Positions 3,301 to 53,649 of a DNA stretch of 64,000 nt are shown piece after piece. A program made the translations under genes and the position numbers. The notes beneath the pieces are model-generated. The model did not search any database. It was not told where the DNA came from and worked only from the letters and a program-made list of their open reading frames with translations. The DNA comes from Caenorhabditis remanei (Eukaryota; Nematoda; Chromadorea; Rhabditida; Rhabditidae), in the NCBI RefSeq assembly GCF_010183535.1, contig NC_071328.1, positions 16,740,001 through 16,804,000 of the forward strand. The letters run 5' to 3'. Positions within the stretch are counted from its first letter, which is position 1; every line of letters starts with the position of its first letter.

Positions 3301-5520
3301 GTTCGAAATTCCTGAAAATGGTAAAGAATTTTCAGAATTTTAGCATAAAACAGACAAAATAAAATAAAAATACTTCAAGAAAATGCGAGAAAATCCGTGA
3401 AAAAAGTGAAAATTTGAAACTGCGCCAGAAATCATGAAAGTTGTTTTTCAGCAGCTTGTCCACGCGGACTACACTACGATTTTACTATTTTTTCGATAAT
3501 AAAACATTTTGACGATTTCCACACAAAAAAATCCGAAAAAAGCGGAAAACCCGTTTCAAAAACCAAATAAACCAATTTCCACTTTTACTGAGGCTAAGCG
3601 ACTACAAACTACAACAAGCTCTTAGCCTCAGAAAATGATAATTCCGGGTTTTTTGATAAAAATCCCCTTGGTTTCGGATAATTTTCCAAAATGCTCAATT
3701 TGAATGAAAAATCGGCGAAAAGTGTAAAAAATTGAGAAAACTACAGCGTTTTTCGTTTTTGCTGAGGCTAACTAATTTTGTAGTTTGTAGTCGGTTAGCC
3801 TCAGTAAAGCAGAACTCATGAAATAGCAGGGTTTTGAACATTTTCCGTGTGTTTTTCGCTAATTTTTTGCTTTTTTCGGCTGTTTTTTTGAGATTAATAG
3901 GAAAAATTCTAGCAAAAAGCAAAAAAATCAAGTAATTTTTATAATTTCCAGACTACAACCGAGCCACCCGCGCCATCTACACCGACGTGACGCACGATCC
4001 ACAGCCGATTCTCGTGAATCCAAAACAGTACCAACGGATTGTGAAACGACGTGAAGCAAGAGGGAAATTGGAGAAAATCGGGAGACTTCGCCAGGGACGT
4101 CAACAGTATCTTCACGAGAGTCGACATATTCATGCGTTGAATCGAACACGTAATGAAGATGGGCGGTTTGATGGTGCGAGAGGTAAGGAGTAGGAAGAGA
4201 CTACAAACTACATAATATCAGAGAATTTGAATTTCAGAATCATCTGACACGTCGACAAGCTCAACGCCACCACCGTCGTCGAGAAGAGAAGCAAATGAAC
4301 AGATGGGAGACAGAAGAGGAGAGGATTATGCAGATATTCGGTAGGTTTTTGACAGTGTCTGTAGGTTTGTCGGGATGTCCACATTTTAAGCCAAAAACCA
4401 AGAAAATCCGTCAAAAACTGACTGAATTAGAGCATTTTTAAAGTTTACTGAGGCTTACTGAGATTTGTAGTTTGTAGTCAGTTAGCCTCAGTAAAACTTC
4501 GAGAGGGTGTAACTCAATGAGTTTTTGATCGATTTTGATGGTTTTTTGAGGGAACTCTAGAAAATCTAAAGTGCTATCGAATGGTATAAAAGTTGTGTAT
4601 AAAATATTTGAAAATGATTTTTTCGGTTTTTGGGAAAAAGTTTAAAAATTGCTTATAATCAAAAAATATAATAAAAATTCGACAATCTGGTACAAAAATA
4701 TTCAAAATCTGTCGAAAACTGACCGAATTAGAGCATTTTGAAATTTTACTGAGGCTAACTGAGATTTGTAGTTTGTAGTCTGTTAGCCTCAGAAAAACTT
4801 CGAGAGGGTGTAACTCAGTGAGATTCTGACCGATATCGTTGTTTTTTAGACGGGAATGTTCATAATTCAAAGGAGAAAGTCAAAATCTCCACTTAACCAA
4901 AAAATTATTTCAATTTTTCCAGCCCGGGACCATCTGCCACGAAAATCTACAAATCCGCACCGAAACAACCAGCCAACAGCCTACCGGAGATTCGAAATAA
5001 TCATACTCCGTAAGACTACAAACTACAAAATGTATCAAAATCAGTTATTTTTCAGTTCAACGATTCCACCAACTCCCGCCGAAAACCCATCATTCAAAAC
5101 ACCCATGGGAGTTCCAAAGATCGATTTTCGGTAAGACTACAAACTACAAATTTATCCGATAAGCCGTCCAACTTTCAGCCTCACCCCAAGTGCTCATCCA
5201 ACTAATTCAAAATCGCCTATCGTCATTTTAGGATGTGAAGACAGAAGTATGATGTGAGTAGACTACAAACTACAATTCCTCGTCGTGTACTCCTCTCGGA
5301 TAACGTTTTAAAACAAAACTGTGTGAAATCCACTTTTCCGAAAGGACTACACGACTGGATTTCGATAGAGCGTACTTGTCATTATTAGATCATTTTCAGC
5401 CCTCCATCTCCACCGCCACTACCAAAAGTGTACCCGCCTGTTCAAAACATACGTACAGTACCCCGTCAGAAATTCGAGCCGGCGAAACCGAGAATGGAGA
5501 AACCGCAGCCGAGAATTTGA
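336..5520 (+). CDS. nfya: NF-YA family CCAAT-binding transcription factor subunit (5' end outside window)
   Basis: Role by homology: sequence-specific subunit of the heterotrimeric CCAAT-binding factor NF-Y in the nucleus. Exons that join in frame: possible 9-bp microexon 336-344, 497-538, 595-670, 736-1884, 1932 to about 2035, 3104-3190, 3239-3320, 3952-4182, 4238-4340, 4923-5009, 5056-5130, 5179-5253, 5400-5520 (TGA). The exon at 3952-4182 carries the family core: the subunit-interaction helix around [20 protein letters not shown], a linker, then the DNA-contact part with [13 protein letters not shown] and DGRF. The long exon 736-1884 encodes an acidic, Pro-rich region with repeated Met-Asp pairs; the C-terminal exons are Ser/Pro-rich. 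The donor ending the 1932 exon is unresolved (phase-0 options at 2006 or 2036); an unspliced reading would stop at 2065, so two genes cannot be excluded. Several introns start with the ACTACAAACTACAA motif directly after the donor. NF-YA identity is strong; continuity of the 5' part is moderate. Confidence 0.82.
2101..3000. repeat. 201-bp tandem repeat, about 4.5 copies, in NF-YA intron
   Basis: Unit starts recur at 2101, 2301, 2502, 2702 and 2903, a 200-201 bp period. Each unit contains TGAGGCTAAGACTACAAACT, a second GAGGCTAAC, a T-rich part, then GATATTGACAAACTTTCGGCG and ends CCCTAGAAACAG. Copies differ by only a few bases, so the array is young or homogenised. It fills the intron between the NF-YA exons ending near 2035 and starting at 3104. 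Confidence 0.92.
3587..3631. repeat. GAGGCTAA/TTAGCCTC hairpin element, copy 1
   Basis: ACTGAGGCTAAG and its inverted partner CTTAGCCTCAG enclose the ACTACAAACTACAA motif, giving a potential stem-loop inside an NF-YA intron. Confidence 0.65.
3761..3806. repeat. GAGGCTAA/TTAGCCTC hairpin element, copy 2
   Basis: GCTGAGGCTAAC and GTTAGCCTCAG flank TAGTTTGTAGTC, the motif now in inverse orientation. Same architecture as the copy at 3587. Confidence 0.65.
4400..4850. repeat. duplicated intron segment with two hairpin elements
   Basis: A segment around 4430-4535 recurs at 4730-4835, about 300 bp apart. Shared parts are AGAGCATTTT, a hairpin (4446-4496 and 4747-4794) formed by GAGGCTAAC/GTTAGCCTC around TTTGTAGTTTGTAGTC, and then CTTCGAGAGGGTGTAACTCA. 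It lies in the NF-YA intron 4341-4922. Confidence 0.75.
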
Positions 5521-9250: not shown

Positions 9251-11314
9251 TCATCCAATAGTGACATCCGGTGGTCCACGCTTTCCACACACATACAATC
9301 TCGTCGGTGGATCATGAGCCATATGACACCAATAGTCATCAATGGTGCTGGTGAATGGAGCCCATTTGTTAGGTGCCGACCAGTAGGCAGGTGTCATCAC
9401 AATCAATTGAAGACAGTTTTGTGGTCTGGAAATAGAAGAGAATTTCAGAAACAATATTACCAATTTCGCTCAACTTTAACAGCCTGTTACGATCTCCCCC
9501 TATTACTGAAATTTTATGAATGTTAACTATTATCGGAATAAAAAAGTTCCGACATTTTTTACCGACGCGCAAGGTTCGCGCCACTGATCTCCGGGAACGC
9601 CCACTCATCATAAACATTTCTTCTGCAATATCAGGGCACGGTTTCATTGATTTCGCGGGTGAAGTTTTGTTTAAAAATACAAATTTAAAAATAAAATTTG
9701 ACCTATTTCCTTTAAAATTTGATCTTTTTTCTTCAAACTTCATGGTGGAAATGAAATTTTAAAGGAAATAGGTCAAATTTTATTTTTAAAAGTGGTATTT
9801 TTAAACAAAACTTCACCCGCGAAATCAATGAAACTGTGCCCTGATATTGCAGAATAAATGTTTATGATGAGTGGGCGTTCCCGGAGATCAGTGGCGCGAA
9901 CCTTGCGCGTCGGTAAAAAATGTCGGAACTTTTTTATTCTGATAATAGTTTTATAGACAAAATCCAGGGCTACATTTTTGTAGTTGACAATTTTTTGATA
10001 GCTCCGCCTACTTTTGAGCTATGAGCTTTTAAAGTTCGGAGGCTCCGCTAAAAGTGTATCTCCGTATGTTATTGTGTTGAGCGCATTTTTCTATCTTACT
10101 TTCAAAATGAAAACTCTTAGCCTCCGACGACGGTACGTTAGGTGCTTCGTTATTACCATTTTACCTCTTCTTTAGATTTTTCTACCTATTTTTATAGTTT
10201 TATTGCATTTTTTTTGTGAATTTTCAACCGTTGCACTGCACATTGCACCCCAAACGTACCCATGGGATTACTGACGCTTAAGCTCTGTGCAAATTTTTAC
10301 TGTAGCTTAAAGGCGCATACCAAAAAAGTTTTCTTACAGTATACAAAAATTAATAAATGAGCCGTTTTCTACCGAATTCAGTGAAGTTTTGGTGTTTTAA
10401 TTATATAATAGGAATAAAAATTATTTTACCTCCGAAAAGCCGGTTTTTTGGGTTTCCTAGCATTTTTATCGCGTTCTGCTCACTGTAGTCTTCTGGCGCT
10501 TTTCTCGGTGCGGGTGCCTTGTGTCAAAAGCGGTTTTGACGTAAGTTAGAGTTTTTTCATCTTGATACTCTTGCTTTATTTGGATTTATAATATTTGTTA
10601 CTCTATTATTCCTCAATTTTTACTTATGCTCTTATCTACTCACCCTCTCGGATCGCCATTCCCATTATTCGGTTGTCCAGGTCCATAAAAGAATCCCTCA
10701 ACGCCCTGCGTATTTCCATCATTCCATCGAAACGTTCGTGTGCCCGCATTATGAGATGCTCCCAGCCATAGGCCAGCAATTGTGATACCAGTGGGAATGA
10801 GCTGTCTGACTGTCTCATTCACCATATATTGTCTTTCAGCGTCGTTTTGAATTCCAGACAGGACTCCTCCGAGTGTTTGACACTGGGATTGAGACTGGTG
10901 ATATGTTAGGTGGGCTATTCCAATCTGGAAGAAGTGAGTCTGGGGTGCCAGTGACGCGTTTTTGCTAGTTTCCTAAGCCTCTCCTACCTCCTTAACTTAG
11001 GCTCTTACTAGTAACTCTTTTGACTACAAACTACAAACCTTCATACACCATATCCCCTGTGGCCGATACGATGTGTACCATCCCTCCTCACATTGTGGGC
11101 GTGGCTTAGGTGTGATGGGGGCGGAAGTTTCAGAGCTCCCGGAATCCTGCTCTTCAGAAGAAGAAGAAGAAGAAGAGGAAGAAGAAGATGAGGCAGAGGA
11201 AGATAAGGAAGAGGAAAAATTAATGAATTTTTTCTTTCCGAAGGTTCTTCTCCGAATATGGCCTTGAATCAATGTAAAGCATAGAAAAAATAGGAGAAGC
11301 GAGGAAAGTCGCAT
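9251..11314 (-). CDS. secreted C-type lectin domain protein with poly-Ser linker
   Basis: Exons 11314-11039, 10924-10644 and 9425-9251 (TGA) give 243 aa. Signal peptide LLLFFLCFTLIQG; a Ser-rich linker including about a dozen consecutive Ser; then QCEEGWYTSYRPQGIWCMK opening the lectin domain. The middle exon has LWLGAS and WNDG; the last exon has PQNCLQLI, DDYWC and VCGK. The calcium-site triad is QPN (GPGQPNNGN). Exon structure and phases match the gene at 6134, so the two are tandem paralogs. The last intron (9426-10643) is unusually long because it holds a 430-bp palindrome. A second compatible first exon lies upstream at 11730-11969. Confidence 0.85.
9518..9960. mobile_element. 430-bp palindromic element inside lectin intron
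   Basis: The left arm (from TTATCGGAATAAAAAAGTTC) is repeated inverted in the right arm (ending GAACTTTTTTATTCTGATAA). Arms are about 210 bp with few mismatches, separated by a handful of bases near 9742. It includes CGACGCGCAAGGTTCGCGCC. It looks like a foldback/MITE insertion. Confidence 0.85.
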
Positions 11315-11729
11315 TTTTTGAGGCGGAAAATCTCAGAAAAATAAGAAAAGAGCTGGTATAACAGCGGGGGAAAGGTTTCTCAAGATTTATCGGGGTTCTC
11401 AGTTTTTATTGTCAGAAAAAAAAGCGTTAAAGTTTTTCATCTAACAGTCTTTTCAAAATTGACAATTTCTGACAGCTGGTGCACCTTTGACTCGTTTTTG
11501 AGAAGGAATTTTGAATTGAAAGCAAAAGTAAGCCTCAGAATCAGTTGTGAGCCAAGTAGTTTGAAAGGGTTTACCTGAGCCTCATTCAATGCAAAAAACA
11601 CGCCTTAGGCGCCCCAGATTCTAAAAACCATTTTATTTTTCTAATTATTAATTGTTAATTATTTATTTTTTTATTTTTTCAAAGCCAGATCATTTCTAAG
11701 AAACTACAAACTTCAAACTACAAACTAAC

Positions 11730-11969
11730 CTTCATACACCATATCCCCTGTGGCCGATACGATGTGTACCATCCCTCCTCGCAGTGTGGGCGTGGCTTAG
11801 GTGTGGTGGTACGAGGACGATGTGGATGGTGTCCACCATGATGTTCTTCTGATGATGAGGATGCTGAACTGGACTCGGATTCACATGAGGAGTGGTCTCT
11901 AATTTGGATTGCCCAAGTGGGGAGGAGAAGGGTAAAAAGGGTGACGAATAGTTTAAGGTGGCGAATCAT
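11730..11969 (-). CDS. orphan lectin first exon (alternative first exon or remnant)
   Basis: Opens with ATG at 11969, encodes a signal peptide (LFVTLFTLLLPTWA), a Ser/His-rich linker and HCEEGWYTSYRPQGIWCMK, then a GTTAGT donor in phase 0. That is the same ending and phase as the first exon of the lectin gene at 9251-11314, with no downstream exons of its own before that gene. It could splice to the shared exon 2 at 10924, giving an isoform with a different leader and linker, or be left over from a tandem duplication. Confidence 0.65.
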
Positions 11970-12746
11970 GGCTCTGAAATTAGAAAGAAAAATTTGAGTA
12001 ATTGACTACAAACTATAAAAATCGGTGAGTCTCTACAACTTTGGGATCATTTTACCAGCTTCTTGCAACCCCTTTATAGTATATTTTCTTCCGATCAACC
12101 CGTTTAAAAATCGGCTACTAAAACACCCCAGTAGCTTTTAGTACCGATGACGCCATATGACTATTCGGTTTTTGAGGAAAGTTACCGGGAGGGGAAACTT
12201 AGATTAAAATTTTGTTAGATGATATTCAAATGTTCTGATGCAAGCAAAGTTCATGTGATATGTTGAAAAATAGCTTTTTTGAGAGCACCGTCATGTTTTC
12301 AATTATTGAAGTTTAGTTATTTGTTTACATCAAAAGCAGGGATATAAGGTACACTGATCAAGATACCAACTTTGAGATCCTGTCACTGTATTATTTTTTA
12401 ACCAAATTTTTTAAAATCAGGCTAGTTTTATAGATCAAATGCAGGCTACAATTTTCTAGTTGTCAACTTTTCCCTAGCTTTGCCCACTTTAGAGATACAC
12501 ACGTTTAAAGAGAGCTGACATAGCTTCTTTTTGCCGAAGGCGCACCAGTTGCGTTTTCCTGGGCCATTTAGCGCAGCAGGCACACCGGACTAATATTCTG
12601 ACAATAGAACCAATCGAAGTTTAGAATCTAAAAAATCATATGTTTCCACGTAAACTTACCCTCATTTTATTTATTTCCTTCCGGAACACTCCACTCTTTT
12701 CTTCATTTCCCACCAAATAGAACAACTTGCTACTCGATAAAATCAA

Positions 12747-13784
12747 ATGAGTCGTCATAATCGTGGTTCCCCATATTACCATAACCAGCCACCCGTCGTT
12801 CGACGTCATCACCAACAACAACTTCCAGAAGAGAGAGACGAACCGATAGACGTTCCGAATGCAATCGCCACAATGCCAGTGAGGATTACGGTAAGTTTTT
12901 AAGATCCTAAGAATTTGAATTCCCGCCAATTCAGGGATACCGCCCACTAGAGCCCGCGTCCGCCCTTCAATCCATCGCAGCCAGCAACTGTTTGATGGTT
13001 GTTCAGTGTTTGGAACCAATTGAGATGATGACTGGAATTGAGACTCCGAATCGGTATATTGTGCATGATATGTTTATGAGACGGGTAGGTGTCTTTGACA
13101 GAGCTAGCTTCTCTGCGTCTTCTCGTTTCCAACACTATTCTTCAGATCCTCTACGCCCACGAGGAATCCGACTACTGGGATCGCTCCTGCGACCGAAATC
13201 GTCGCAGCTTCGACCTCCACATGTTTGATAACCGTCGCCAACGGATCATGAGCTCTTCCCGTTACGGTGGTGGTAGTTGTACCTGCTCTCCGGATGTCTT
13301 GGAGACATGGCATCGTGGGAATTCTATTGGATTACTGTCACGTGACATGTTTGACTATAGAGTAAGTCAATCTGTCCTAACCTCCAAATGTCCCCTATTC
13401 CGTTCAGTTCTACCTCCGCGTCGCCGGGTGTCCCACTGAATTCTGTATCGTCGCACCGGACAGTGCTCAGAGTAATCCGGCATGTCGGACTCGTCACACA
13501 CTCCCATTCCCGATATACGTCCAGGGAGGTGCTAAGGTTGGAGAGATTGTTCGTCTGGATCCGGGGTATTTGGAATGGGTTAGCGATGCGGATACATATA
13601 TGATTCATTGTGAGTTATGGTCACATTGCTACTGGCTCTTGATCTAGTTATCCTTCTCATTTCAGTTCCTGTCGATATGCCTGTCATCATCAAAATGCTT
13701 CTACTCCAAGCTACGTTTCTCATCGATTTCACTTATTTTGAGGATCGTGGACAACAGGGAAACGGAGCGGTGGTTTATTATTAG
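12747..13784 (+). CDS. phospholipid scramblase family protein
   Basis: Five exons (12747-12890, 12935-13084, 13146-13361, 13408-13609, 13666-13784) join to 276 aa. Family marks: an N-terminal Pro/His/Gln-rich segment; LEPIEMMTGIETPNRY, matching the family's leucine-glutamate-threonine-glycine block; IVHDMFMRRILYAHEESDYW; a Cys-rich part SCTCSP; and near the C-terminus FPVDMPVIIKMLLLQ with ATFLIDFTYFE, the predicted terminal membrane segment. Scramblases of this family are membrane-associated and linked to calcium-dependent lipid movement or signalling. Length is typical (about 270-320 aa). It sits on the opposite strand from the lectins on either side. Confidence 0.9.
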
Positions 13785-14193
13785 AACTGTATTGACATTT
13801 GAATAAATTGATCAGTGTGACACCGTGCTACACTAACACAAATAAATACATTAATATTCGCAAAGAAATAGTCGAAAAAAACACAAACAAGTCTAGTCAC
13901 AAGTCACAAGTCTGGACACATTCCGCAACCGCGTCGCTCCGAAATCTTAATAGTACTACATGTGCTGGGCTTGCAACAAAGCTAGTGTAATGGCGCTCCC
14001 CAAATCAGAATTACTCGGAGTAAAACTCGGAAACCATCAAATCTAAGCTTAAATATAACGTTTAATCATTTTTTTAATCGGTTTTGATTCGAGCGGTTCC
14101 GAGGCAGTTTGGATTCAGGGCAGCACCATTGAAAACCTGTCACAGCTGATGTCTAATTACTGCAACAAAAATGAAAATGTCAAAATAACGTTT

Positions 14194-15287
14194 TTATTCG
14201 TATCGAAATTTTAAAATTGCTTCTATTTCATCCACGAGAACATCATTCAAACGACAATATGCACCACGGAAGGCATATCCAGAGCTAGTAGTGGAATCAA
14301 ACCTGCAACTTGATTATTTTTATTCAAGCGTGTTTGGCTAACAACTATAGACGACACTCACCCAACATCACCCAGCTGATTACTCTTATAGAGCATCAGT
14401 GCAGCCGTAGCACCATCATTTGGTTCTCCATCAAAGAATTGATATCCACCGGATCCTTCATGAGAGTCATCGTCAAATGTATATTCACCAGTCGCATTAC
14501 AGTAACCATCAACCCAGAGACTGTTTTTATTAGTAGCAATCGGGGTCAGTGGAGCGAGTGCTGTTGATGCAAGATCTGCAAATAGTTGGCAGTTCTTACT
14601 ACTGATATCAGATTCAATCTACTTTGAAAAAACGAGAATTCTATGGAATTACTGGGTCCGGTGATACTGTATCCTCCATTTCCCTTGCACAGTGCTTGAG
14701 CTCTAGTGTAATTTCCAGGCTCCAGATCTTCAAATATACGAATCCCGACACAGACAATTTTAGACGTTCGAATATAGATAGTTGAGTTGACTGGACACTT
14801 GGTTATGAGATTAACAAGGTTCCACGTGGCACTCTCAGAAGATATAGCTTTTTGGAAGATGTGAGTACCATTGGACCATTCTGTGGAAATGGAAGGGATG
14901 GCGGTGGAGGAGTTGTGGAGTTTATCTAAGCACAAACCAACAAGTTTTCATTACATTGACGGTCCCTGATCTACCTACCTTAAACGCCACTAAAAAACTG
15001 AATTCCTTCATGATAGTAATGTTGCCCCATTTGAAATATCCACACTGGAGGAAATTTAATTGAAATGCTAGCTGAGAATCAATCAAGCGTTCAAAAATCG
15101 GGGACGTTTTTAACACTCTTACCAAGCAATCATCATCGAAATAGCACTCCGATATACAATCCTCCCATAACATCATTTTTCTGAACGTTCCAGTGGTATT
15201 CACTGGTGTTCCGTTCATTACGATCATTTTCATCGAATGTGAAAGTGATAGATTTGATATAAAAACGAGAGAAAATAGTAGAAGCAT
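14194..15287 (-). pseudogene. CW/PAN-like plus C-type lectin gene with frameshift
   Basis: Starts ATG 15287 with signal peptide LLLFSLVFISNLSLS, then a CW-type (PAN-like, nematode-specific) domain opening MKMIVMNGTPVNTTG and closing FLVAFKV. The lectin part has CVGIRIF, YTRAQALCKGNGGYSITG and DGYCNATGEYTF. Near 14605 one base is missing relative to the paralog at 15706, shifting frame after NLISV and ending in HQQHSLH before a stop. Beyond the shift the old frame is still open through GGYQFFDGEPNDG and a final exon with SGYAFRGAYCRL. Called a pseudogene because of the frameshift; a sequence error would restore it. Confidence 0.65.
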
Positions 15288-15705
15288 GTCGAATGAGAAG
15301 GGAAAAGAATGTATAGCTTTGTGCACCCGAACTGCTATTCCGCTAGACAGTAATAAAATGTACGTTGTTGTGCTTGATGTTTTGGGAGTCTTCCATTAAA
15401 AGCGAAAGTAGAAAAGGTTTTTATGACTCAGACCAAGTGAAAGGACACCGTTAAAAGAAAACAACAACTTTGTGAGGAAAAACTGGGAAAGACAAAATTT
15501 ATGTATGCTTTTGTGGTTATAGGCTCTAGTGATAGACATGTACATTAAAAAGACCATTCACCCGATTTTTATTGGTAGGGCATATAGATTTGAGGTTTTG
15601 TCTGAAACTAACAGAATCTTAAGCAATTTAGCTGGTATGAGCTTGCCTTGATGTTGTGATAGGTTTTAATAATAACAAGGATGTTTTATTTATCGAATTT
15701 AATAA

Positions 15706-16440
15706 TTAAACCAAAACATCCTTCAAACGACAATATGCACCACGGAAGGCATATCCAGAACTAGTAGTGGAACCATACCTGCAACTTTAGTATTTTTGTT
15801 CACTGTAAAACGTGTTTGGCAAACAATTATTGAAGCCACTCACCCAACATCACCCAGCCGATATTGTTGATAGAGCATTAGTGCAGCCGTGGCACCATTA
15901 TTTGGCTCTCCAGTAAAGAATTGATATCCGCCCGACCCTTCATGAGAGTCATCGTCAAAGGTATATTCACCAGTGGCATTACAGTAACCATCAACCCAGA
16001 CACTGTTCTTATTATTAGAAATCGGAGTCAGTGGAGCGAGGGCTGTTCTCGAAAGATCTGTAAAAAGTTGGCGGTTACACTGACTCGATGTCATATTCGA
16101 CCTACTTTGGAAAAACGCGAACTCTGTCGAATTACTGGGTCCTGTGATACTGTATCCTCCGTTTCCATTGCACAACGCTTGAGCTCTAGTGTAATTTCCA
16201 GCCGTTAAATCACTAAATATTCGAATTCCAACACAGACAATTGTATTCTTCCGTGTGACCATAGTTGAGTTAGCTGGACATTTACTCATGGTGTAGACAA
16301 AATTCCATGCATTACTATTAGAGGTGATCACTTTCCGGAAGATATATGTTCCATTGGTCCACTCGGTGGAAATAGGAACAATGGCCGTGGAGGAGTTGAT
16401 CGGGCTATCGGTGGAGTTTAGCTGGAATCAGGAATTTTCA
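15706..16440 (-). pseudogene. C-type lectin paralog lacking its CW/PAN-like 5' part
   Basis: A large exon to about 16420 and a last exon at about 15775-15706 (TAA) encode the same lectin domain as the gene at 14194, without the frameshift: CVGIRIF, YTRAQALCNGNGGYSITG, VWVDGYCN, and EPN in FFTGEPNNG, the mannose-type triad. Upstream there is a 3' splice site (GATTCCAG) at about 16421 but no exon with an initiator or the CW domain, although TATA-like CTATAAATATC sits near 16527. Either truncated by deletion or with a first exon I cannot find. Confidence 0.55.
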
Positions 16441-16832: not shown

Positions 16833-17607
16833 TCAAATCCCGCTTCCCGATCCAGTTTTAGTCTTCTTATGTTTCTTGAAGAATCCACTCTTGGTTTTTC
16901 CAGTTTTTGTATGTCCCGTTGTTGTCCCTTTACCAGTCTTCGTAGTTTCTTTAGTTCTCTTTGTTTTTCCAGTTTTTCCAGTTTTTGTAGTTTTTGTAGT
17001 TCCGGTTGTTGTCCCTTTTCCTGTTTTCTTCTTTCCACCATTAGCACCTGTTTCTCCACCATCAGCGATTGTCAATTCGTTTCGACGAGCTCTTCTTCTC
17101 TTCAACCAACATCGCATCCAACATATACCGATTACGAGAAGCAAGACGATGAATCCGATAGACATACCAATCAGCATTCCAGTGTTACTTTTTTGAGTTG
17201 TAGGCACCGATGTAGTGGTGGTTGTTGTGGTTGTTGTAGTTGTAGTTGTCGATTCAGTTGTAGTGGTGGGTTTCAATGAGGGTACTAATTCGTAACAATA
17301 TGCTTCTGCAACAATTCAATTTATCAAAATCTAAGCATTTGACTCATACCGTCTGACGGTTTCATCATCTCTTTACAGTAGCGTCGAGCTCCTCTCAAAA
17401 TATACTTTTTACATTTTTCACCGGCGAAATCTTTATAACAAATGGATACCATTTCTCGGACGATTACTTCGCAGTTTACGTCATGTTCTGTGATAAACCT
17501 GATTGCAAAAAAAGAAAATATAACAAGAAACACTCACTAGTACATTCGCCGTATGTTTGTACTCGATGTACTTTGTACATCTCCCACTTTCTTTTCCCCG
17601 CTCCCAT
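16833..17607 (-). CDS. six-cysteine, Thr-rich stalk, single-pass membrane protein (family member 1)
   Basis: ATG at 17607; about 226 aa after splicing at the donor after TYGECT, acceptor TTATCACAG, and a further phase-1 intron before EAYC. No signal peptide. Six cysteines (residues about 22, 29, 40, 49, 61, 73) spaced 6, 10, 8, 11, 11. Then a run of about 20 Thr, a membrane segment (IGMSIGFIVLLLVIGICWM) followed at once by a basic stop (KRRRARR), and a tail of repeated Lys-Thr-Gly. Orientation is predicted N-outside by the positive-inside rule. Paralog of the genes at 18350, 19582, 20882, 22864, 23952 and 25284. Family not recognised, function unknown. Confidence 0.8.
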
Positions 17608-17623
17608 CCAATATGATTCATAG

Positions 17624-18349
17624 GCTTTTAGTCTTGAATCATTCTTTCTATCTGTTTTAATTGAATTCTTTCACCCACACATTTTCTGTCTGGCTCCGCC
17701 TCTGCCCAGTATAAAAGCAGAGGCGAGAGCTTATCTTTTATCTTTTAATAAAGGTTTAATTACCCAAGTTTGAGGTATCGAGTCATACTAGGTTTCACTA
17801 CAAAGTGTCCCTCCAGTCAGTGCGAGCCAGAACCCCCATTCGTCACAATGTTGCATCCTGACTGGAAAGACTTTATTTGTACAATACCTTCGGATAGGTG
17901 AATACTTACAAGCTTTTATATAAGTCTTTCGACATGACGTTTAAAGTTCGCAATAACTTAATCAATAGTGCTTTATGAACGGACAACAGAATGTCAGTGC
18001 ATGCTCTGGTACCCTGATATTGATAGAATCAGGCTGCCGGGGTTTCGATGCTAATGTCAAGAGGGCTCTGGTTACTAGTGTAACGGAAATCCACGGCTAC
18101 TTGAACATGAAAAAAGAAGGATTTTTATCAGCATGTCTTCCGTTACCCCCGACATGGTCCGCCCTGACCATTTTTGTTCTTTGGCCAAAAAAAAACATTA
18201 CTAAAACTCTTGATTTTAAATTGAATAGACTCGTTTTGTCCGCCCTGATTTGTCCTGTCCTCTCCACTGACACCAGTACCCTATTAGCCTCCGATCAGTT
18301 CGTTCAATCATCAAAAAGGAAATTTCTAAAGTCATTTCAATTCTCAGAG
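17624..18349. other. divergent intergenic region, possible LTR-like remnant
   Basis: Separates two divergently transcribed six-cysteine genes. It contains TATAAAAG near 17710 and AATAAA near 17748, only about 35 bp apart, a compact arrangement seen in retrotransposon LTRs, but clear TG..CA ends or a primer-binding site are not established. The open frame across 17975-18349 has no coding features. Confidence 0.3.
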
Positions 18350-19221
18350 ATGTCTTCTCAAATGATTGGCTCTGATTTAAGTCTAGAGATGTTCAATATC
18401 AAGTGAGTTCTGTGTCAATTTTGAAACACATCAAATATTTTTAGAGTCGATAATTATGTTAAAGCATGCACAAGTAAGTTACTAGTTGTTTAACCGTTAT
18501 TCCTATATAAATATTTCTTAGGCAACCCAGGGATTTGTGATTCAAACGCAATGAAACAAATAAAAATATTGTGCTTGGCTGATTACGAGAGTAGGTCAAA
18601 TTTTTTAAAAATTGAGAAAATTGAAATTACAGTAGCCACATGTGATGCTATGGTTAATGGTGTCTTTAAGAAATTCTGTGCCAGTCGTCCTGTTGATAAG
18701 AAAGATGGTGAGTGGACAATCCAGAGTAAATAGGGGCGTAATACACTACAGTAAAATCCCAAAACACAAAAAACTCGGCTTTTCCACGAGGAGTACACAT
18801 CGCCTGTCATTGGAGCAACTTAACTATCCCTTCTTGTCTCCAACTATGCTTAACCAAATTTGACCTACTTATTCCAGCTGCCTATTGCAAAAAACTATTC
18901 CCTGACTCGACCACTTCTCCGCCTCCTATCAGCACCACACCTCCATCCTCTATCGTATCCAATCTCACCATTGCCACAGCAATCTCTCCTGAATCCTCTA
19001 ACAATCTAGGTCTACTCATTGGATGTCTGGTTGGAGCTTTCTTTTTGGTCATCATTGTTATCGTTCTGTTTTGTTGGTGGAGGCGAAGAAAATTGATGGA
19101 TAAAGAGTTGTCATCGATTGGCGGGAAGAGTGAATCAAAATCGAAAAAGCCAGTGATTGCTGAGAATAAGAGAAAGTCTATATGGATTATGGTGGATGAT
19201 GGGGATGAGATAAAGAAGTAG
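18350..19221 (+). CDS. six-cysteine, single-pass membrane protein (family member 2)
   Basis: Five exons joined by introns of phase 2, 1, 1, 1 give 189 aa. No signal peptide: the N-terminus is MSSQMIGSDLSLEMF. Cysteines are spaced 6, 11, 8, 11, 12 (ACT, GICD, ILCL, ATCD, KFCA, AYCK). A Ser/Thr/Pro-rich stalk leads to a membrane segment (IGCLVGAFFLVIIVIVLF) and WWRRRK, then a short charged tail. Introns fall just after cysteine 1, between cysteines 3 and 4, and between 5 and 6, as in its paralogs. Function unknown. Confidence 0.82.
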
Positions 19222-19581
19222 TTAGAAAATACATGTTAGAACTATTATACTTTATAGTGTTTTTATTGGATAAAATATAATATTTGATAATGCAGTAAAT
19301 AATCTGCTTGTTTTGGGTTTTTCCAATAAAATTCTAGTCAGGAATCCTATTGATACAGTTTTGGTATCTTAGTGCCCAAGCGGTGTAACATGTCCTGTCA
19401 TTGCAACTCTCAATCCAAGGAACTATCCTTTTCTCATAGCTTAAAGAAAAAAAACTCGTGGCAGCCTCCTAGTGCCCGTCGTCACTGAACTTCACTCGAC
19501 CGTAACCCTGCACCAATTTCCTTTCCCTGTTGTCAGTGGAAAAATTTTATTAGTATTCTACCAAACTCGACTTTGTTCAAC

Positions 19582-20332
19582 ATGACAGACGCTAAGAAAA
19601 TTCGTCTAATGTATGTTCCCAGCTTACAGGTCCTGAATAGTTTGTTCTTTTTTACAGGAGTGATCTCATTATAGATGCATGTGACAGTGAGTTAGAATTT
19701 AATTAATACAATAATAAACACACAGTTGAGTTTCAGGAAACGCCAAAAAAGTATCAAATGGAACTACACTACCACCGTATCTTTCTTTACTGGGATGTCA
19801 TGATAAAATGAAGTCAGTGATGAAAATTTGTTACAAAGTGGAATCTAGTCGTGAGTAGCATTGAAAAAATTTAAACACCTTGCTAACATTAACTGCAAAT
19901 GTGTTATAAAATTAACATTCACTTCCAGCGAAGGACTGCGACAAATGGTTCAAGGCAGCACTCCAAAACTACTGCAAGAAAGACAAGTCTGTGGAACCAT
20001 GTGATTTGCTCAACCCAACAACTCCGGGTGCTGAGATCCCCAGAATTGGAACTGCACCCCCTAAAACTGACTTTTCAACTCTCCTTCCAACTACAATCAC
20101 TTCAACTCTAGAGCCAACCACTGCCTCTGCCGATCCTTCTATCCTTCTTTTTGGAATGATTGCAGGAATCGGTGTATTGTTTATCGCGTGTCTTGTGGTT
20201 ACTTTGATGTGTATGAGTGAGAAGAAAAAGCCGCAATGTGGGGGACGTCCTCCAAAAAGACCAATGAAGTCAAAAACGGATTCGGGAAAAAGTGTGTCGG
20301 AAAGTGCTTCCGGCAAATCTATTCCAGTGTGA
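19582..20332 (+). CDS. six-cysteine, single-pass membrane protein (family member 3)
   Basis: About 191 aa from exons joined by phase 2, 1, 1 introns. N-terminus MTDAKKIRLM without signal peptide. Cysteine spacing 21, 10, 9, 11, 8; the long 21-residue first loop is shared only with the next gene (20882). Stalk rich in Thr/Pro, membrane segment around LFGMIAGIGVLFIACLVVTL, then a Lys-rich short tail (SEKKKPQ...). Same strand as the genes on both sides, about 360 and 550 bp away. Function unknown. Confidence 0.82.
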
Positions 20333-20504
20333 ACTAAACCATAGAACTCGTTGTGTAGTGGACTTACCTTTTCCTTAATAATTGGATAATAAATTTGTCT
20401 CCTTGTTAGTCATTGTTTTCTTATTTGTCCTGCTGAAAACTCAATCTGTCGCTTTACTCATTATGCCATTATCCTTATTATTCAAATTTTTTTCAGCACG
20501 TATA

Positions 20505-20651
20505 CTAGCACGGCACGGTTCTTACAACCGCGTTCTACCGAAACCAAAGAAAATTGTGCGCGAAATTGAGAGACTGAGAGAAAACGAGACATTTCTCAAG
20601 GAGATTTCGGTGGGGCGCAGTTGTAAGAACTGTGCTGAGCTAATACGCTAA
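20505..20651. mobile_element. short inverted-repeat element (MITE), family B
   Basis: Left end AGCACGGCACGGTTCTTACA; right end inverted, GCGCAGTTGTAAGAACTGTG then CTGAGCTAATA. About 145 bp. Copies at 43975-44106 and 63408-63540. Lies between two six-cysteine genes. Confidence 0.8.
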
Positions 20652-20881
20652 CTTTATCTGTGACAAGAATTGACGAGTTGCATCCCGCTGGTTCTTTCAC
20701 GTAAACCTCTACAACGTCTCAATTTTAATGACACCGACATTTAAACCTTATAAATCGGCACCCTAGTCTTATGATCCAGTGACCGATACATTAAACTTCT
20801 AGGATGTTCCATATTCCAAACATCATAACAACAAATACTTGAAACAACAACTACGCTGTTTCACACTAGAAGAGTGAGCAA

Positions 20882-22028
20882 ATGGGCAACGTCTTAGAAC
20901 CCGCGATGCGTGGGAGCGTATTTAATGAGGAAATGGACAACGAAATACAGCGATTGTTGGTCGAAAAGCGACAATTTGTAAGAGCTGATTTGTAAGTTTT
21001 CAACATGAAGTTACTCGGAATTTTCAAATTTTCAGAAAACCATATATTTTTAGCTACTGTGGTAATATATATAGTATGAGTAAGTAATTTTTAACACTAT
21101 TTTTTGCTTAAATTCCAGAAAAGTTGTAATTTGAAAGAAGCGGTTGTAAAGTGTTACTTATGAGTTTTATATTCTTATAAGCAGCTGTAACACTGCCTGT
21201 GTAATAATAATTTTTTGCAGAGGATAATGTGGAAAGTCTGCCTGCTGAGCCACGTCTGTTTAAAGATCAAGTTCATTTTTGTGTCACCCTTGTTGATTGG
21301 ATAAGAGAGAGATGTTTGAAAGATCATCCAGGTAAAATTATTTCAATTATGATTTAAGCTCTACAACTGGTTTTCAACTTTTACGCCAACGTTTTTGACT
21401 TTCAATTAGCGTCGATTTATAAGGTTTCACATCTGTTTTACATCCTGCTTGCGATCTGAAAAATGAACGTGCAGAAAATTATAGAATTTCAGAAATTGCA
21501 AACAAGTGTTTTTCAGCAGGTACATGTGATTGGTGGATTCATTTGTTTCTAGCCGACTACTGTGACAATGCCGCTGAAGGCGCAAAAATCATTTACTGCG
21601 AGGATTTTAAAACAACCGTGCCTCCGAGAATCACGAAACCCTCAACTCTCCCTTCTACAACTACCACAACCACCACTACAACAACCACCAGCAAACCATC
21701 CACTGAGGACATGATTACTAATGTCATCATGTTTGGAACAATTGGCGGATCGATTTTCTTGCTTCTCGTCATTCTAGTTCTCTATTTGCTCAATCGTAGT
21801 AGACAGTTGAGAAGAGAACGTGAGGAGAGAGAAGCAGCGATGTGGGGATTCAATGGAATGCTGTATACGAAAGAGGACAGTGAGAGTAAGGGATCAGGAT
21901 GGGGTACTGGATGGACTAGTACTGTGAAGGAGACTACTGGGACTACTAAGACTAAGAAAGACAAGAAGAAGAAAACAAAGAAAACTGATGCTTCAACAAA
22001 AACTGACACTAGTGGAACTTGGCTTTGA
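20882..22028 (+). CDS. six-cysteine, Thr-rich stalk, single-pass membrane protein (family member 4)
   Basis: About 253 aa; introns phase 2, 1, 1. N-terminus MGNVLEPAMRGSVFNEE, no signal peptide. Cysteine spacing 21, 10, 8, 11, 11 (SYCG, HFCV, ERCL, GTCD, DYCD, YCED). A run of about ten Thr precedes a membrane segment (GTIGGSIFLLLVILVLYLL) and a basic NRSRQLRRERE stop; the tail has Trp-Gly repeats then a Lys/Thr-rich end. Shares the 21-residue first loop with the gene at 19582, so these two are probably the closest pair. Function unknown. Confidence 0.83.
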
Positions 22029-22399
22029 ATCGGAACTCGTTTTTAAATATTCCTTTACTCGTTAATATGTGTCGATCTGCAAAGTGATAAGATAATAAAT
22101 AATATGTATTTGTTCCATAAAATATGCGCTCTGATGTCATTCTACCTACAACATTTTTTGAGAAGTTGTGAACTTTTACAAAAGATAACTCGATGATAAA
22201 AGTCGAGTATTTCCCAGGACTTATACCTAAATCTTATTCAAATTTCGGCTCTATGTGATTATAGCGAGCCGAAGTCAAGAACGCGGGCCGAAAGTGAAAC
22301 TAGCAGGCGGGACGAAAGTAGTAAAGGAAAATATAAAACAGCTTGGCAATCGGGAAAAATCGAATTTATTAAACAATAAATTTCAAAAAAAAATTTGCC

Positions 22400-22610
22400 T
22401 TAGCGGTTTTGAATTTCTTTGGAGGTGGAGTCTTCTTTGGAGGTGGAGTCTTCAGTGAAGGCAGTGGTTTTCTGAACTCTAGTTGTTTTTGATCTCGGTG
22501 TAGTAGAACCTGGAGCTCGTGGTGGAATGATTTTCTTGGTTGACCTCCCTCTTCTGGAATTTACCTTCTTATTGTTAGTCGTCGTTGAGCTCACAGAGAA
22601 TCGTGGATAC
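22400..22610 (-). pseudogene. possible tail fragment of a six-cysteine family gene
   Basis: A short open frame beginning within SSTTTNNKKVNSRRGRSTKK, rich in Lys, Arg, Ser and Thr, with a repeated TSKEDSTSKE. The composition resembles the cytoplasmic tails of the neighbouring family, but no membrane segment or cysteine exons are visible upstream. Could be a remnant or chance. Confidence 0.25.
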
Positions 22611-22863
22611 GTAAAATTGTATATTTAAAAAATTAAGTATATAAAACGGTTAAACCATGAATACAATACAATAACTTCCAATTATATTCTTAGAAGCCAA
22701 TGAGCGCTTCAATTTAGGGCCCACTGTTTTGATTTGGCCCCATCATTTTGAAGGTTTCGGCTCACTATAATCCCGTAGAGCCCAAACTTCTAACTTTCAC
22801 TGAACTTCAAGATATCAAAATAGTTTTTTGTTTAAAACGGAACAAGTTTATTATAAAAATCAA

Positions 22864-23753
22864 TCAAGTCTTAGAACTAGCAGTCCCACTAGTTTCACCA
22901 GTACCAGTTGTCTTCGATTTCGTTGTCTTCGCCTTCTTCTCCTTCTTTTCCTTTTTTTTCTTCTTCCCTTCTCCATCCGCTCCAAAACTACCGTAACCCC
23001 ATGATCCACTCTCCACATCACTCTTCTTCGATCCATCTGTTGAAGTACTCGACCATCCAGGAATATTCCACTGCTCCTCTTCTTTCCGTTTCTTCTCACT
23101 TTTACGATTACACAAATAACAGATGAGAACAGAGACAAGTAGGATGACAATGACTGCTCCGATTGTTCCATAACTGATAACATACTGGGTTTTCATGAGA
23201 GGATTTGCGGTGGTGGTCGTAGTTGTAGTGGTTGTGGTTGTGGTAGTTGTGTCGAGAATAGTAGAGGTTATCAGAGTGTTGCAGAAGGTCTCTGAAAACA
23301 AACAACATAATGGACCTATTCACAAGGTATCAAAATAATGAAAACAACTATTTTTCCTACTAGTAAAAATAGTTTTTTTAGCTTTATACACGGTTCTAAT
23401 CACTCACCATTCTTGATATTTGGCCGAGTGCAATACATTACAAGTGCGTCATATCTCATTTGCTGACATTTCACGGTTCCTGTGAAATTCAGAAGTTTGG
23501 ATCAATTAGTATTACGACTGCAAACTTACCATTCGAAAGTTTTGATATACAATCGTTATAAACATTTTCTGCCTCTTTTTGGCAGCTGTTTTTGTTGTCT
23601 ATAAAAAACAGAATAGAATGAAATCTGAATTTGAATAAACTCACAGAAACAAAGCTCCAAAATTTTGGTTAGGCTGTAATTATTTGATATTTTCTGTAAA
23701 TGTTCTAGTTTAGCAGTTACTTACAAATCAGAAATTGTCTTCAACTCTTTCAT
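22864..23753 (-). CDS. six-cysteine, Thr-rich stalk, single-pass membrane protein (family member 5)
   Basis: ATG 23753; first intron uses the acceptor AATAATTACAG (phase 2; the nearer AG would leave a 31-bp intron and a stop), then three phase-1 introns; 208 aa. N-terminus MKELKTISDF, no signal peptide. Cysteine spacing 6, 10, 10, 11, 10. About 14 Thr, membrane segment (GTIGAVIVILLVSVLICYL), CNRKSEKKRK stop, then a tail containing WNIPGWSSTSTDGSKKSD and Lys-rich repeats. The tail motif IPGWSS and the following Ser/Asp stretch are shared with the gene at 23952. Function unknown. Confidence 0.8.
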
Positions 23754-23951
23754 CGTGGTTTCTTGATTGGATTAATTGTTTCAAATCTAGAATCTTCTTT
23801 TTGTTTGACATTTTGTGTTTTCAGTGTCACCAGGGTAATGGTTATTGGGCGGCCGGGGTGCTGAAAAGTGTCCCGGTCAGAAACATAAGAAAGAGTTCAT
23901 ATAAAATTCATATAATTGGATTCTGAAAGTTTGAATCAGTAATTCGCGAAA

Positions 23952-25016
23952 ATGACGCACCAACGGAACCGTCGAGACTACTTCAATAATATGCATAGGA
24001 AGATATTCGAGAAATGCAAGAGTAACTATTGAAACCTAGTTATTTTCAATTGAATACTGAATTCCAGAAAAGAAGGAATACAAGTACAAGTCATGTGAAG
24101 AAGCTGCGGACTTTCATTATCGGAGATGTATTACTGATTACTTATACGGTAACTAGAGATAAGAGAAATTTGATCTACTAATATTTTTTAGTGGATGAAT
24201 GTCGGGACAGTGTGTACAACACAGTGCTTTCCTATTGTACGGGTGAAGGGAAGGGTAGTAAGTTTTTGTGTATGATTTCCCACAGATGGTTGAGACACAT
24301 ATTTTGCAGCCAAATTCTGTAACAACCTTACGACACCCACAATTCCTCCATCTACTACCACTCTTACAACCACTAAACCGTCTACTACTACTAAAGAGAA
24401 GCCTCTCATCAAAACTTCTCATATGATAACCGTTGGTGCAATTTGTGGAATTCTACTTCTCTTCATTATTGGCATCATCATTTTCTGTTGTATCCGTAGA
24501 AGACGTCAGAGGAAGAAGGAGGAGGCGGAAGGTTGGGGAATTCCCGGATGGTCGAGCTCCTCGACGACATCAGGAAGTTCTACGAAGAGTGATGCTAAAA
24601 GTGATGCTGAAAGTGGAGCGTGGGATTTTGGGACATCAATGGGTACTGCAAAGGAGAAGACTAATATGATGACGGCGATGGCTGGAGGAGCGACTGGAAC
24701 TTCGAAGAAGAATAAGAAAGAGAAGAAAGAGAAAAAAGATAAGAAGAAGAAGTCGGCATCAAAGCCCGTTGAGATTCCTGTCACACCTCCGACTCCTGCG
24801 ACTACTCCAACTGCTGGGACCCCATCAACACCTGCACCTGCTCCGAAATCCGGATTCGCTGGTCTCCCTGCGGTTCTCGGTGGTGCTAAGAAATCACAGA
24901 TAGCTCAAAAGGCTCCGAAGTCCGCAAGTAACGAGAAGCATGTACCTACTGGAAGTACTGCAACTATTCGGCCATTGATTTGGAATAAGCAAGCGGCTGA
25001 GAATGTTTATTATTGA
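23952..25016 (+). CDS. six-cysteine, Thr-rich stalk, single-pass membrane protein with long tail (family member 6)
   Basis: 306 aa from four exons with phase-1 introns. N-terminus MTHQRNRRDYFNNMHRKIF is basic and not a signal peptide. Cysteine spacing 9, 10, 9, 11, 9. Thr-rich stalk, membrane segment (GAICGILLLFIIGIIIFCC), IRRRRQRKK stop, then WGIPGWSSSSTTSGSSTKSD, a Lys-rich block and a Pro/Thr/Ala-rich end with VTPPTPATTPTAGTPSTP. Longest family member. Head-to-head with the gene at 22864, whose start is only about 200 bp away, so the two may share a promoter. Confidence 0.84.
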
Positions 25017-25283
25017 TTTATCGGCTTTTACTTGGTTCATAAATGAAAATTGATTATTTTTCTTAAAGAAGAAATATTTTCCTCGTTGCTTCAATAATAT
25101 CTCGTAGTCAGTAAATTGCAAAGTTGAGAAGTTCAGTAGATCAGCCGTTAAACAAACTTGTTCCGTGATTAAAATTAAACTAAGCCCCATCTCTCTTAGT
25201 CTTTCAATCTCCAAGGCGAAGGTTCTCATACAATATTTATTTCAAATGTTAACTAGTAAAACTTTTCAGTCAGTAACAAAAAA

Positions 25284-25935
25284 TCAATAATAAGCAGTGC
25301 CGCCAGTAGTTCCAGTTGTCGTTTTGTTTTTCTTATTCTTCTTTGTCTTTCCTCCAGTCGTCTTCGTTTTTGTAGTTATTCCTCCAGTCGTTGTCTCTTT
25401 TGTCGTAGTTTTTCCAGTAGCAGTTTTCCCAGTAGATGTCCCTCCAATGGTTCCTCCTTCTCGATTTTTTGCTCTTCTTCTGCGATTCCAAAAGTAGATC
25501 GCCAATCCAAAGATAAGGAAGATAATGCCTCCACCAATCGCCGAAAGAATGATAACCAACGAATAACTCTTTGTAGTTGTTGGAACAGAGGTAGCAATTG
25601 TAGTGACAGTTGTTGTAAATAATTTGTAATCACAAGGGCCCCAATTAATTTTCTGATCACCAAACCTTCCAACCCAAAGATCACAATGTTGAGTCATAAG
25701 CGGGAGCATGAGATCTATGCAATATTTTTCTAAAGAAAACAACAACAGTCTTTTTGATTCAATTAAATCGATCACCTCCTTTATCAACTTTACATTCTTC
25801 CAAAAGTTTTGAAACATTGTCTTTGCAATCCGCTCCGTGTTTAGAAGGGTCATTGTCTGAATTAAAAATATGAAAAGTTTCAATTGAAAGCCACTCACAT
25901 TCGCACGCCTCTTCTATAGCTATATACATTTCCAT
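25284..25935 (-). CDS. six-cysteine, single-pass membrane protein (family member 7)
   Basis: 187 aa, ATG at 25935; two phase-1 introns. Only ten residues (MEMYIAIEEA) precede the first cysteine, so no signal peptide is possible upstream of the domain. Spacing 11, 10, 8, 11, 16. Thr-rich stalk, membrane segment (IILSAIGGGIIFLIFGLAIY), WNRRRRAKNR stop, and a Gly/Thr/Lys-repeat tail ending in two Tyr, like the end of the gene at 23952, which also finishes VYY. Convergent with that gene. Function unknown. Confidence 0.82.
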
Positions 25936-53564: not shown

Positions 53565-53649
53565 ATGGTGTTGAATAGTTTGAACTCCCCCGCGGGGGCT
53601 AGATCCCTTTTATAGCAACGAGAGCGAAAAGGTTTTATTGCAAGAGAAT

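What the first reader, a model, noticed from the sequence alone, without database searches (positions are those of the whole stretch)
16833..25935. Seven-gene cluster of an unrecognised six-cysteine membrane protein family
Seven paralogs within 9 kb on both strands share one plan: six cysteines, Thr-rich stalk, single membrane segment, basic stop, Lys/Thr/Gly-rich tail. I cannot match this to a named family. The sequences between the cysteines are almost unalignable, so the family is diverging fast while keeping its frame, as expected of surface proteins under recurrent selection (recognition, pathogen contact, gamete interaction).
Basis: partly seen in the sequence, partly recalled or inferred. 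Interest (0 to 1): 0.9.

Follow-up and report, generated by a model that had tools for sequence, protein, structure and literature searches.

The report
Undescribed six-cysteine worm surface-protein family
Seven neighbouring genes in a free-living roundworm belong to a larger, apparently undescribed family of probable cell-surface proteins whose small outer domain varies widely while six cysteines stay fixed; what they recognise is not known.

Summary
Seven spliced genes (16833-25935) share the ectodomain C-x(6-21)-C-x(10-11)-C-x(8-10)-C-x(11)-C-x(8-16)-C, a phase-1 intron after Cys1, a Thr/Ser stalk, one membrane segment and a basic stop. Corrections: the Lys/Thr/Gly tail is weak in B and C, and gene A is interrupted by a 290-base solo LTR. 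The genome is Caenorhabditis remanei (database names). The cluster is part of a family: at least 27 loci carry the Cys2-Cys5 core (not all intact), plus one C. brenneri and one C. nigoni protein. No Pfam or NCBIfam model reaches its cut-off on the cysteine domains tested, and DUF19 is excluded. Two shallow AlphaFold models agree on a small helical domain without a convincing PDB match. In three close chromosome II paralog pairs the cysteine exon has a higher nonsynonymous share than the stalk-to-tail exon; omega above 1 is not significant. Best reading: N-outside surface recognition proteins with a variable head and a partly constrained tail. Tissue and ligand are unknown.

The parts
16833..17607 (-). 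Gene A, exons 17607-17538, 17487-17350, 17305-16833 (226 aa model); 5' part lies in a solo LTR
   Evidence: model; LTR; cysteines 2-5 in one exon, 17473-17375
17558..17847 (.). Solo LTR of a repeated element, with 5-base target duplication ATGTT at 17553-17557 and 17848-17852; interrupts the second coding exon of gene A
   Evidence: 42 further rows in the same genome at 83-99%, some of them short pieces; query 14-303 fits 17847-17558; ends and duplication printed; exon size read by eye
18350..19221 (+). Gene B, exons 18350-18402, 18445-18473, 18522-18590, 18633-18707, 18878-19221 (189 aa) = GCK72_003516
   Evidence: identical to P0002; structure
19582..20332 (+). Gene C, exons 19582-19610, 19658-19686, 19737-19850, 19929-20332 (191 aa)
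20882..22028 (+). Gene D, exons 20882-20991, 21036-21061, 21221-21331, 21517-22028 (252 aa)
22864..23753 (-). Gene F, exons 23753-23725, 23673-23645, 23598-23530, 23479-23408, 23291-22864 (208 aa)
23952..25016 (+). Gene E, exons 23952-24021, 24068-24148, 24192-24257, 24310-25016 (307 aa); best match in this genome of C. brenneri P0004 and of CRE_13928 (P0001)
25284..25935 (-). Gene G, exons 25935-25899, 25856-25776, 25729-25284 (187 aa)

Best explanation
The seven genes encode single-pass surface proteins with the N terminus outside and the C terminus in the cytosol. The outer part is a small helical domain, probably stapled by three disulfides, held off the membrane by a Thr/Ser stalk that is probably O-glycosylated. 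It acts as a variable recognition head: cysteines keep the frame while the exposed helix faces change. Constrained juxtamembrane and C-terminal stretches link it to a common intracellular partner or sorting route. Shown: gene structure (one window model confirmed by annotation), cysteine frame, membrane segment, charge asymmetry, family membership, a higher nonsynonymous share in the cysteine exon of three close paralog pairs outside the window. Inferred: disulfide pairing, O-glycosylation, orientation in the members without a signal peptide, surface location, recognition function.
For: Homology of the cysteine domain: the window-7 HMM scores 16 of 18 other members (17 C. remanei, 1 C. nigoni) above the 95th percentile (10.1 bits) of 900 shuffles that keep the cysteines in place; the misses are the V 21.795 Mb gene (9.8) and the III 12.618 Mb gene (6.6). 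The reverse HMM scores 7 of 7 window domains above its 95th percentile (9.8). hhalign score 33.6 against at most 21.4 in 40 column-permuted controls. Contiguous Cys2-Cys5 pattern 17 times in 23 fetched loci (209 kb; 12 loci have one), 0 in the reversed loci, 0,0,0,1,0 in five Markov controls, 0 in eight DUF19 loci, 0 in the window outside the cluster (the 23 loci had been chosen by similarity). Orientation: 3-9 Arg/Lys after the membrane segment against 0-3 before in 13 of 13 proteins checked; four chromosome III loci carry a signal-peptide-like exon and an extra domain upstream of the same cysteine exons (my script models include it in three of the four; the two scored N termini gave 2.91 and 3.51). 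Helical domain: H16-24, H29-46, H49-66, H71-79 in P0003 (pLDDT 80-87 by blocks over residues 21-70) and H6-28, H35-48, H51-68, H73-82 in gene B (pLDDT 65-78 over residues 11-70). Rate contrast: omega for Cys2-Cys5 against Cys6-to-end 1.13 v 0.22, 1.77 v 0.66, and saturated v 0.22; nonsynonymous/synonymous counts differ between the parts at one-sided p = 0.001, 0.031, 0.006. Gene E against C. brenneri: Cys2-Cys5 part 14 of 35 identical, last 22 residues 20 of 22; against CRE_13928: 15 of 28 aligned, juxtamembrane 38 of 41.
Against: None of the seven window proteins has a signal peptide (best 11-residue hydropathy in the first 40 residues at most 1.33), so 96-151 residues before the membrane segment would have to cross by a reverse signal-anchor route. 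dN above dS in the cysteine exon is not significant (p 0.49, 0.22, 1.0), so relaxed constraint explains it as well; two more distant pairs give omega 0.46 and 0.32 there. One member of the first pair (II 4.689 Mb) has an in-frame TGA and may be a pseudogene. The tail is only partly constrained: gene E's middle tail is as diverged from C. brenneri (28 of 69) as the cysteine part (14 of 35). Single shuffles can score high: the best of 900 reached 19.3 bits, and 8 of 18 members exceed that; in the reverse test the best of 350 reached 21.0, and 2 of 7 exceed that. AlphaFold alignments held 5 and 3 sequences, pTM 0.36 and 0.31; no coordinates were available to check cysteine distances. No expression, localisation or binding data were reachable. 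Odds lowered from 0.55 to 0.5 on recheck, because the two distant pairs and the middle tail speak against a clean head/tail split.
Confidence: 0.5

Rival explanations
1. Reproductive version of the best explanation (odds lie inside it): the proteins sit on sperm, egg or reproductive-tract cells and mediate gamete recognition or sperm competition, like the male secreted short proteins in role though not in structure.
For: The only database relatives named by species come from C. remanei, C. brenneri and C. nigoni, which from my own knowledge are all male/female species; no C. elegans or C. briggsae protein was returned. A published sperm proteome reports C. remanei sperm proteins without C. elegans orthologs (passages of PMC6081950), and mss genes are described as largely lost in selfing species (passage of PMC10015627).
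Against: The protein search reaches only relatives sharing 5-residue words, and three species are too few. The CRE genes printed in the passages seen of PMC6081950 do not include CRE_13928. I found no member on contig C6, but weak rows there (E 0.012 and above) were not opened, and with so few independent clusters absence would be no evidence.
Confidence: 0.2
2. Immune or environmental version of the best explanation (odds lie inside it): the proteins sit on intestine or epidermis and contact microbes or toxins; ectodomain turnover follows pathogens.
For: The cluster lies near C-type-lectin-like exons (Lectin_C match at 10643-10972; exons at 14.5-16.4 kb and 51-54 kb look similar by eye, but did not match Pfam). 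That lectin arrays often have immune roles in worms is own knowledge.
Against: Of 10 flanking exons scanned, 1 matched Lectin_C and 1 matched Core-2/I-branching enzyme; neighbourhood is weak evidence; no induction data.
Confidence: 0.2
3. Relaxed constraint: a lineage-specific family drifting under weak purifying selection, with the cysteines kept only for folding and no recognition race.
For: omega near 1 in the cysteine exon without significance above 1, and 0.46 and 0.32 in two distant pairs; gene A interrupted by an LTR; II 4.689 Mb with a stop.
Against: In the alignment of 16 domains three cysteine columns are invariant and three at least 90% although the rest is 12-26% identical to the first row; stalk-to-tail omega is 0.22-0.66; gene E's last 22 residues keep 20 of 22 against C. 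brenneri.
Confidence: 0.3
4. Inverted topology: the cysteine domain is cytosolic and reduced, and the Lys/Thr/Gly tail is outside.
For: No signal peptide in the window members.
Against: Positive charges follow the membrane segment in 13 of 13 proteins; the chromosome III branch has a signal-peptide-like N terminus; conserved cysteines fit an oxidising compartment (inference).
Confidence: 0.07
5. A divergent branch of the DUF19/T20D4.11-like family.
For: Both are cysteine-rich; 74 DUF19 rows exist in this genome.
Against: hhalign of 16 domains against 6 DUF19 domains: probability 0.6%, 10 columns; no PF01579 row for 10 domains at E up to 10.
Confidence: 0.02

Closest known systems
DUF19 / T20D4.11-like domain (PF01579)
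   Same: Cysteine-rich domain, expanded in the same genome
   Different: Other cysteine number and spacing (9-10 over about 140 residues in the eight stretches); no profile similarity
CHCH / twin CX9C helical hairpins
   Same: Two helices each bracketed by a cysteine pair, and no signal peptide in the window members (CHCH features from own knowledge)
   Different: Here CX10-11C and CX11C plus an outer pair, followed by stalk, membrane segment and tail; no Pfam match
Male secreted short (MSS) proteins of Caenorhabditis
   Same: Short, Ser/Thr-rich, membrane-linked, needed in outcrossing species and largely lost in selfing ones (passage of PMC10015627; structural features recalled)
   Different: Recalled to be GPI-anchored with a signal peptide; here a membrane helix with a basic tail and a six-cysteine head; no sex bias shown
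PF21314 TM_ErbB1 (Pfam)
   Same: Gene E's membrane segment passes the cut-off (37.1 against 27.1 bits); P0001 carries the same precomputed label
   Different: Covers residues 112-143 only; the other six window proteins miss the cut-off or do not match; no kinase or EGFR domain

Membership tests
DUF19 / T20D4.11-like (PF01579) | Significant match to the Pfam profile | tested here: not met
   10 cysteine domains against Pfam at E up to 10: no PF01579 row; none for the seven full proteins
DUF19 / T20D4.11-like (PF01579) | Profile-profile similarity to true DUF19 domains of this genome | tested here: not met
   A7 (16 domains) against A6 (6 of the 8 DUF19 stretches fetched): probability 0.6%, E 0.089, 10 columns
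CHCH / twin CX9C | Two CX9C pairs in a helical hairpin (recalled) | tested here: not met
   Spacing is 10-11 and 11 in all seven; the two-helix plan itself is predicted
CHCH / twin CX9C | Mitochondrial intermembrane or cytosolic soluble location (recalled) | not testable with these tools
   Location not tested; a membrane segment follows the domain
MSS proteins | N-terminal signal peptide (recalled) | tested here: not met
   No hydrophobic N terminus in the seven window members
MSS proteins | GPI anchor signal at the C terminus (recalled) | tested here: not met
   Hydrophobic segment is followed by a tail of about 44 or more residues with a basic start
MSS proteins | Male or sperm expression, loss in selfing species | not testable with these tools
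   No expression data; named database hits only in three species
This family (window set and genome-wide set) | Six-cysteine spacing with Cx(10-11)C and Cx(11)C | tested here: met
   7 of 7 in the window; Cys2-Cys5 core 17 times in 23 fetched loci, 0 in reversed control; Cys1 could not be placed for some other members
This family (window set and genome-wide set) | Phase-1 introns after Cys1 and before Cys6 | tested here: inconclusive
   After Cys1 in 7 of 7; between Cys5 and Cys6 in 4 of 7 (A, B, E, F), absent in C, D, G; also in script models of chromosome I, II and III members
TM_ErbB1 (PF21314) | Receptor tyrosine kinase context of the membrane segment | tested here: not met
   No kinase or EGFR ectodomain row in the seven full proteins

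The most novel reading that the evidence does not exclude
A previously undescribed surface-recognition system of outcrossing Caenorhabditis: a multi-chromosome family whose six-cysteine helical head evolves like a gamete-recognition or self/non-self receptor, with constrained cytosolic motifs, and which has been lost or much reduced in selfing species.
Probability: 0.15. Interest if true: 0.75.

Novelty: new variant of a known kind. Interest (0 to 1): 0.5.

Why it matters
It would give a home to at least 27 loci in one worm that no family model covers, with a compact domain fit for structure work. If expression turns out to be germline or sex-limited, it offers a directly testable set for how recognition proteins diverge between close species; if intestinal, a set of candidate microbe-contact proteins.

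Tried and rejected

Papers: seven library searches; none of the listed titles or abstracts is about this family. I saw passages of three papers (PMC10015627, PMC6081950, PMC3779271) and only listings of the rest. The names CRE13928, GCK72_003516 and GCK72_017676 occur in no held paper.

Rows dropped: protein hits P0005 (E 0.034) and P0007-P0013 (E 0.76 and above); I read the letters of P0005, P0007 and P0008 only. E-values that include the query itself are not used as evidence: P0002 and P0003, and P0003 and P0004, were among the query sequences or equal to them. The second pattern match inside the window (24200-24307) crosses an intron and was not counted. III 14.959 Mb gave no cysteine core when opened. 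Many weak genome rows were not opened, among them I 8.28, I 11.78, I 12.26 and V 2.88 Mb and the C6 rows, so the family count is a lower bound. Of the 23 opened loci (L014, L017-L038), 11 have no contiguous core; two of these (L025, L035) hold members read from spliced models.

Tree of 23 sequences: weakly supported; A-F group at 42%, G groups with the V 21.795 Mb gene at 44%; not used.

C-terminal motif: 22 of 25 modelled members end in Tyr (16), Ile, Val, Leu or Trp (letters copied by me and from L014). The loci were found partly by tail similarity, so the count is biased. PMC3779271 (passages) reports terminal I, V, L, A, not Tyr, as over-represented in type I proteins.
Full report
What is there. 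The seven models are A (minus, 16833-17607), B (plus, 18350-19221), C (plus, 19582-20332), D (plus, 20882-22028), F (minus, 22864-23753), E (plus, 23952-25016) and G (minus, 25284-25935). Each is open. Each has six cysteines before the stalk with gaps of 6-21, 10-11, 8-10, 11 and 8-16; the gap of 11 between cysteines 4 and 5 is the same in all seven. A phase-1 intron follows the first cysteine in 7 of 7; phase-1 introns lie between cysteines 3 and 4 in 6 of 7 and between cysteines 5 and 6 in 4 of 7. Model B is identical to GCK72_003516 and the chromosome V model to GCK72_017676, which supports the splice choices for these two.

Is it more than chance. Shuffling each domain 20,000 times gave the pattern 0 to 3 times. 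Pairwise BLASTP among the seven gives E from about 1e-40 (E-F) to 1e-3 (C-G), but composition correction was off and the Thr runs inflate these values, so I rely on the domain tests: hhalign of the seven domains against 18 others (17 from this genome, one from C. nigoni) gives E 2.2e-6 and score 33.6, while 40 column-permuted controls reach 21.4 at most.

A correction to gene A. The stretch 17558-17847 is a copy of a repeated element with 42 further rows in the genome at 83-99% identity, some of them short pieces. Its ends read TGTACT and GTCACA, and the five bases ATGTT stand on both sides. That is a solo LTR with its target duplication, placed in the second coding exon; by eye the flanking exon pieces add up to 29 bases, the size of exon 2 in B, C and F. 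My model of A starts at an ATG inside the LTR, so in this genome A is either broken or has a new N terminus.

A larger family. Single-protein searches of the whole genome and reading of fetched loci give further members: I 15.919 and 15.920 Mb; II 4.578, 4.579, 4.592, 4.594, 4.598, 4.687, 4.689, 4.704 (partial) and 5.591 Mb; III 7.776, 12.618, 14.976, 15.613, 15.615, 15.618 and 15.620 Mb; V 6.244, 21.795 and 21.796 Mb. With the window's seven this is 28 loci; all but II 4.704 Mb show the Cys2-Cys5 core, hence at least 27. They are not all intact: II 4.689 Mb has an in-frame stop, Cys1 is not placed in several models (I 15.919, I 15.920, II 4.594, II 5.591, V 21.796), and no complete stalk-to-tail part was modelled for III 7.776 and III 12.618. 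The contiguous core occurs 17 times in 23 fetched loci, never in the reversed loci, and once in five Markov resamplings. The window HMM ranks 16 of 18 other members above the 95th percentile of cysteine-preserving shuffles, 8 of 18 above the best of 900; the reverse HMM ranks 7 of 7 window domains above its 95th percentile and 2 of 7 above the best of 350.

Other species. One C. brenneri protein (P0004, E 3.2e-22, where it was not part of the query) and one C. nigoni protein (P0006, E 3.0e-20, not part of the query) were returned. P0006 has all six cysteines at family spacing; the deposited P0004 lacks the first, perhaps through its gene model. P0004's best match in this genome is gene E (49% over its middle, 60% over its end). 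P0001 (CRE_13928, C. remanei) matches gene E at 70%, which within one species means a deeply divergent allele or a paralog missing here; I cannot tell which. No C. elegans or C. briggsae protein was returned, but that search needs shared 5-residue words, so absence is not shown.

Known families. Pfam has nothing over cut-off in ten cysteine domains and NCBIfam nothing in five. Among the full proteins the only row over cut-off is TM_ErbB1 on gene E's membrane segment. DUF19, abundant in this genome (74 rows), does not align with the domain. PDB sequences give E 0.27 at best for the domain profile; the full-length profile finds membrane segments of unrelated receptors.

Structure. AlphaFold with five sequences puts four helices in P0003 with the cysteine pairs inside helices 2 and 3, at pLDDT 80-87 by blocks over residues 21-70. 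Gene B with three sequences repeats the order at lower confidence. This suggests a helical hairpin closed by Cys2-Cys5 and Cys3-Cys4 with Cys1-Cys6 outside; the pairing is inferred, since no coordinates could be measured. No PDB chain stands out.

Topology. The basic stop lies after the membrane segment in 13 of 13 proteins. The window members have no signal peptide. Four chromosome III loci carry an exon with a strongly hydrophobic N terminus and an extra stretch of about 110 residues upstream of the same cysteine exons; my script models include it in three of the four. If that joining is right, the cysteine domain faces outward in that branch, and the same side is the simplest reading for the rest.

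Rates. Five chromosome II pairs were looked at and the three closest re-counted: II 4.592/4.689, II 5.591/4.594 and II 4.687/4.598. There the cysteine exon has omega 1.13, 1.77 and undefined (synonymous sites saturated), against 0.22, 0.66 and 0.22 for Cys6 to the end. In the second pair the synonymous distance is equal in both parts (0.27 and 0.28), so tail homogenisation is not needed; in the third it could be. The counts differ between parts in all three (one-sided p 0.001, 0.031, 0.006), but omega is not significantly above 1. The two other pairs, more distant, give 0.46 (II 4.592/4.704, cysteine part only) and 0.32 against 0.22 (II 4.592/4.598). In gene E against C. brenneri the last 22 residues keep 20, the Cys2-Cys5 part 14 of 35, but the middle tail only 28 of 69; against CRE_13928 the juxtamembrane part keeps 38 of 41, the cysteine part 15 of 28 aligned. 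So short parts of the tail, not all of it, are constrained.

How it most likely works. A stapled helical head on a probably glycosylated stalk presents a changing surface; short constrained tail motifs keep a fixed contact with the cell interior. Recognition of a partner that itself changes, on gametes or microbes, fits best, yet neither setting is tested, and relaxed constraint remains a serious rival. Confidence 0.5 for the surface-recognition reading, lowered from 0.55 on recheck for the reasons given; that the family exists is close to certain.

Noticed in passing
window 17558-17847: Solo LTR (290 bases) with ATGTT duplication; several other copies occur in pairs about 1 kb apart in the same orientation, which suggests a short non-autonomous LTR element.
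   Followed up: partly
L020, L026, L027, L029, L034 (C. remanei contigs C5 and C3): Other predicted proteins have a Thr/Pro stalk, one membrane segment and a Lys/Thr/Gly-rich tail but no six-cysteine head; the tail type may be shared by several families.
   Followed up: partly
family-wide, C termini: 16 of 25 modelled members end in Tyr and six more in Ile, Val, Leu or Trp; possible sorting or PDZ signal, but the sample is biased by tail similarity.
   Followed up: partly
L021 about 4243-4687 (II 4.689 Mb): In-frame TGA just after Cys6 of a member whose stalk-to-tail part is otherwise 92% identical to its II 4.592 Mb sister: probable recent pseudogene.
   Followed up: yes
window 22400-22624, minus: Short basic Thr/Lys-rich open frame between D and F, possibly a remnant tail of another copy.
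   Followed up: no
window 10643-16427 and 51270-53609: C-type-lectin-like exons on both sides of the cluster; only 10643-10972 passes the Pfam cut-off, the rest is by eye.
   Followed up: partly
P0001 (CRE_13928) against gene E: Same-species protein only 70% identical to gene E with a near-identical juxtamembrane part (38 of 41): divergent allele or lost paralog.
   Followed up: partly
L030, L031, L033 (chromosome III): Upstream signal-peptide-like stretch of about 110 residues without a Pfam match over cut-off, found in this genome only with these four loci.
   Followed up: partly
genes D, E, F, cytosolic side: A tryptophan-rich stretch after the basic stop recurs (E and F share W-x-I-P-G-W-S-S, D has a looser version), by eye.
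   Followed up: no
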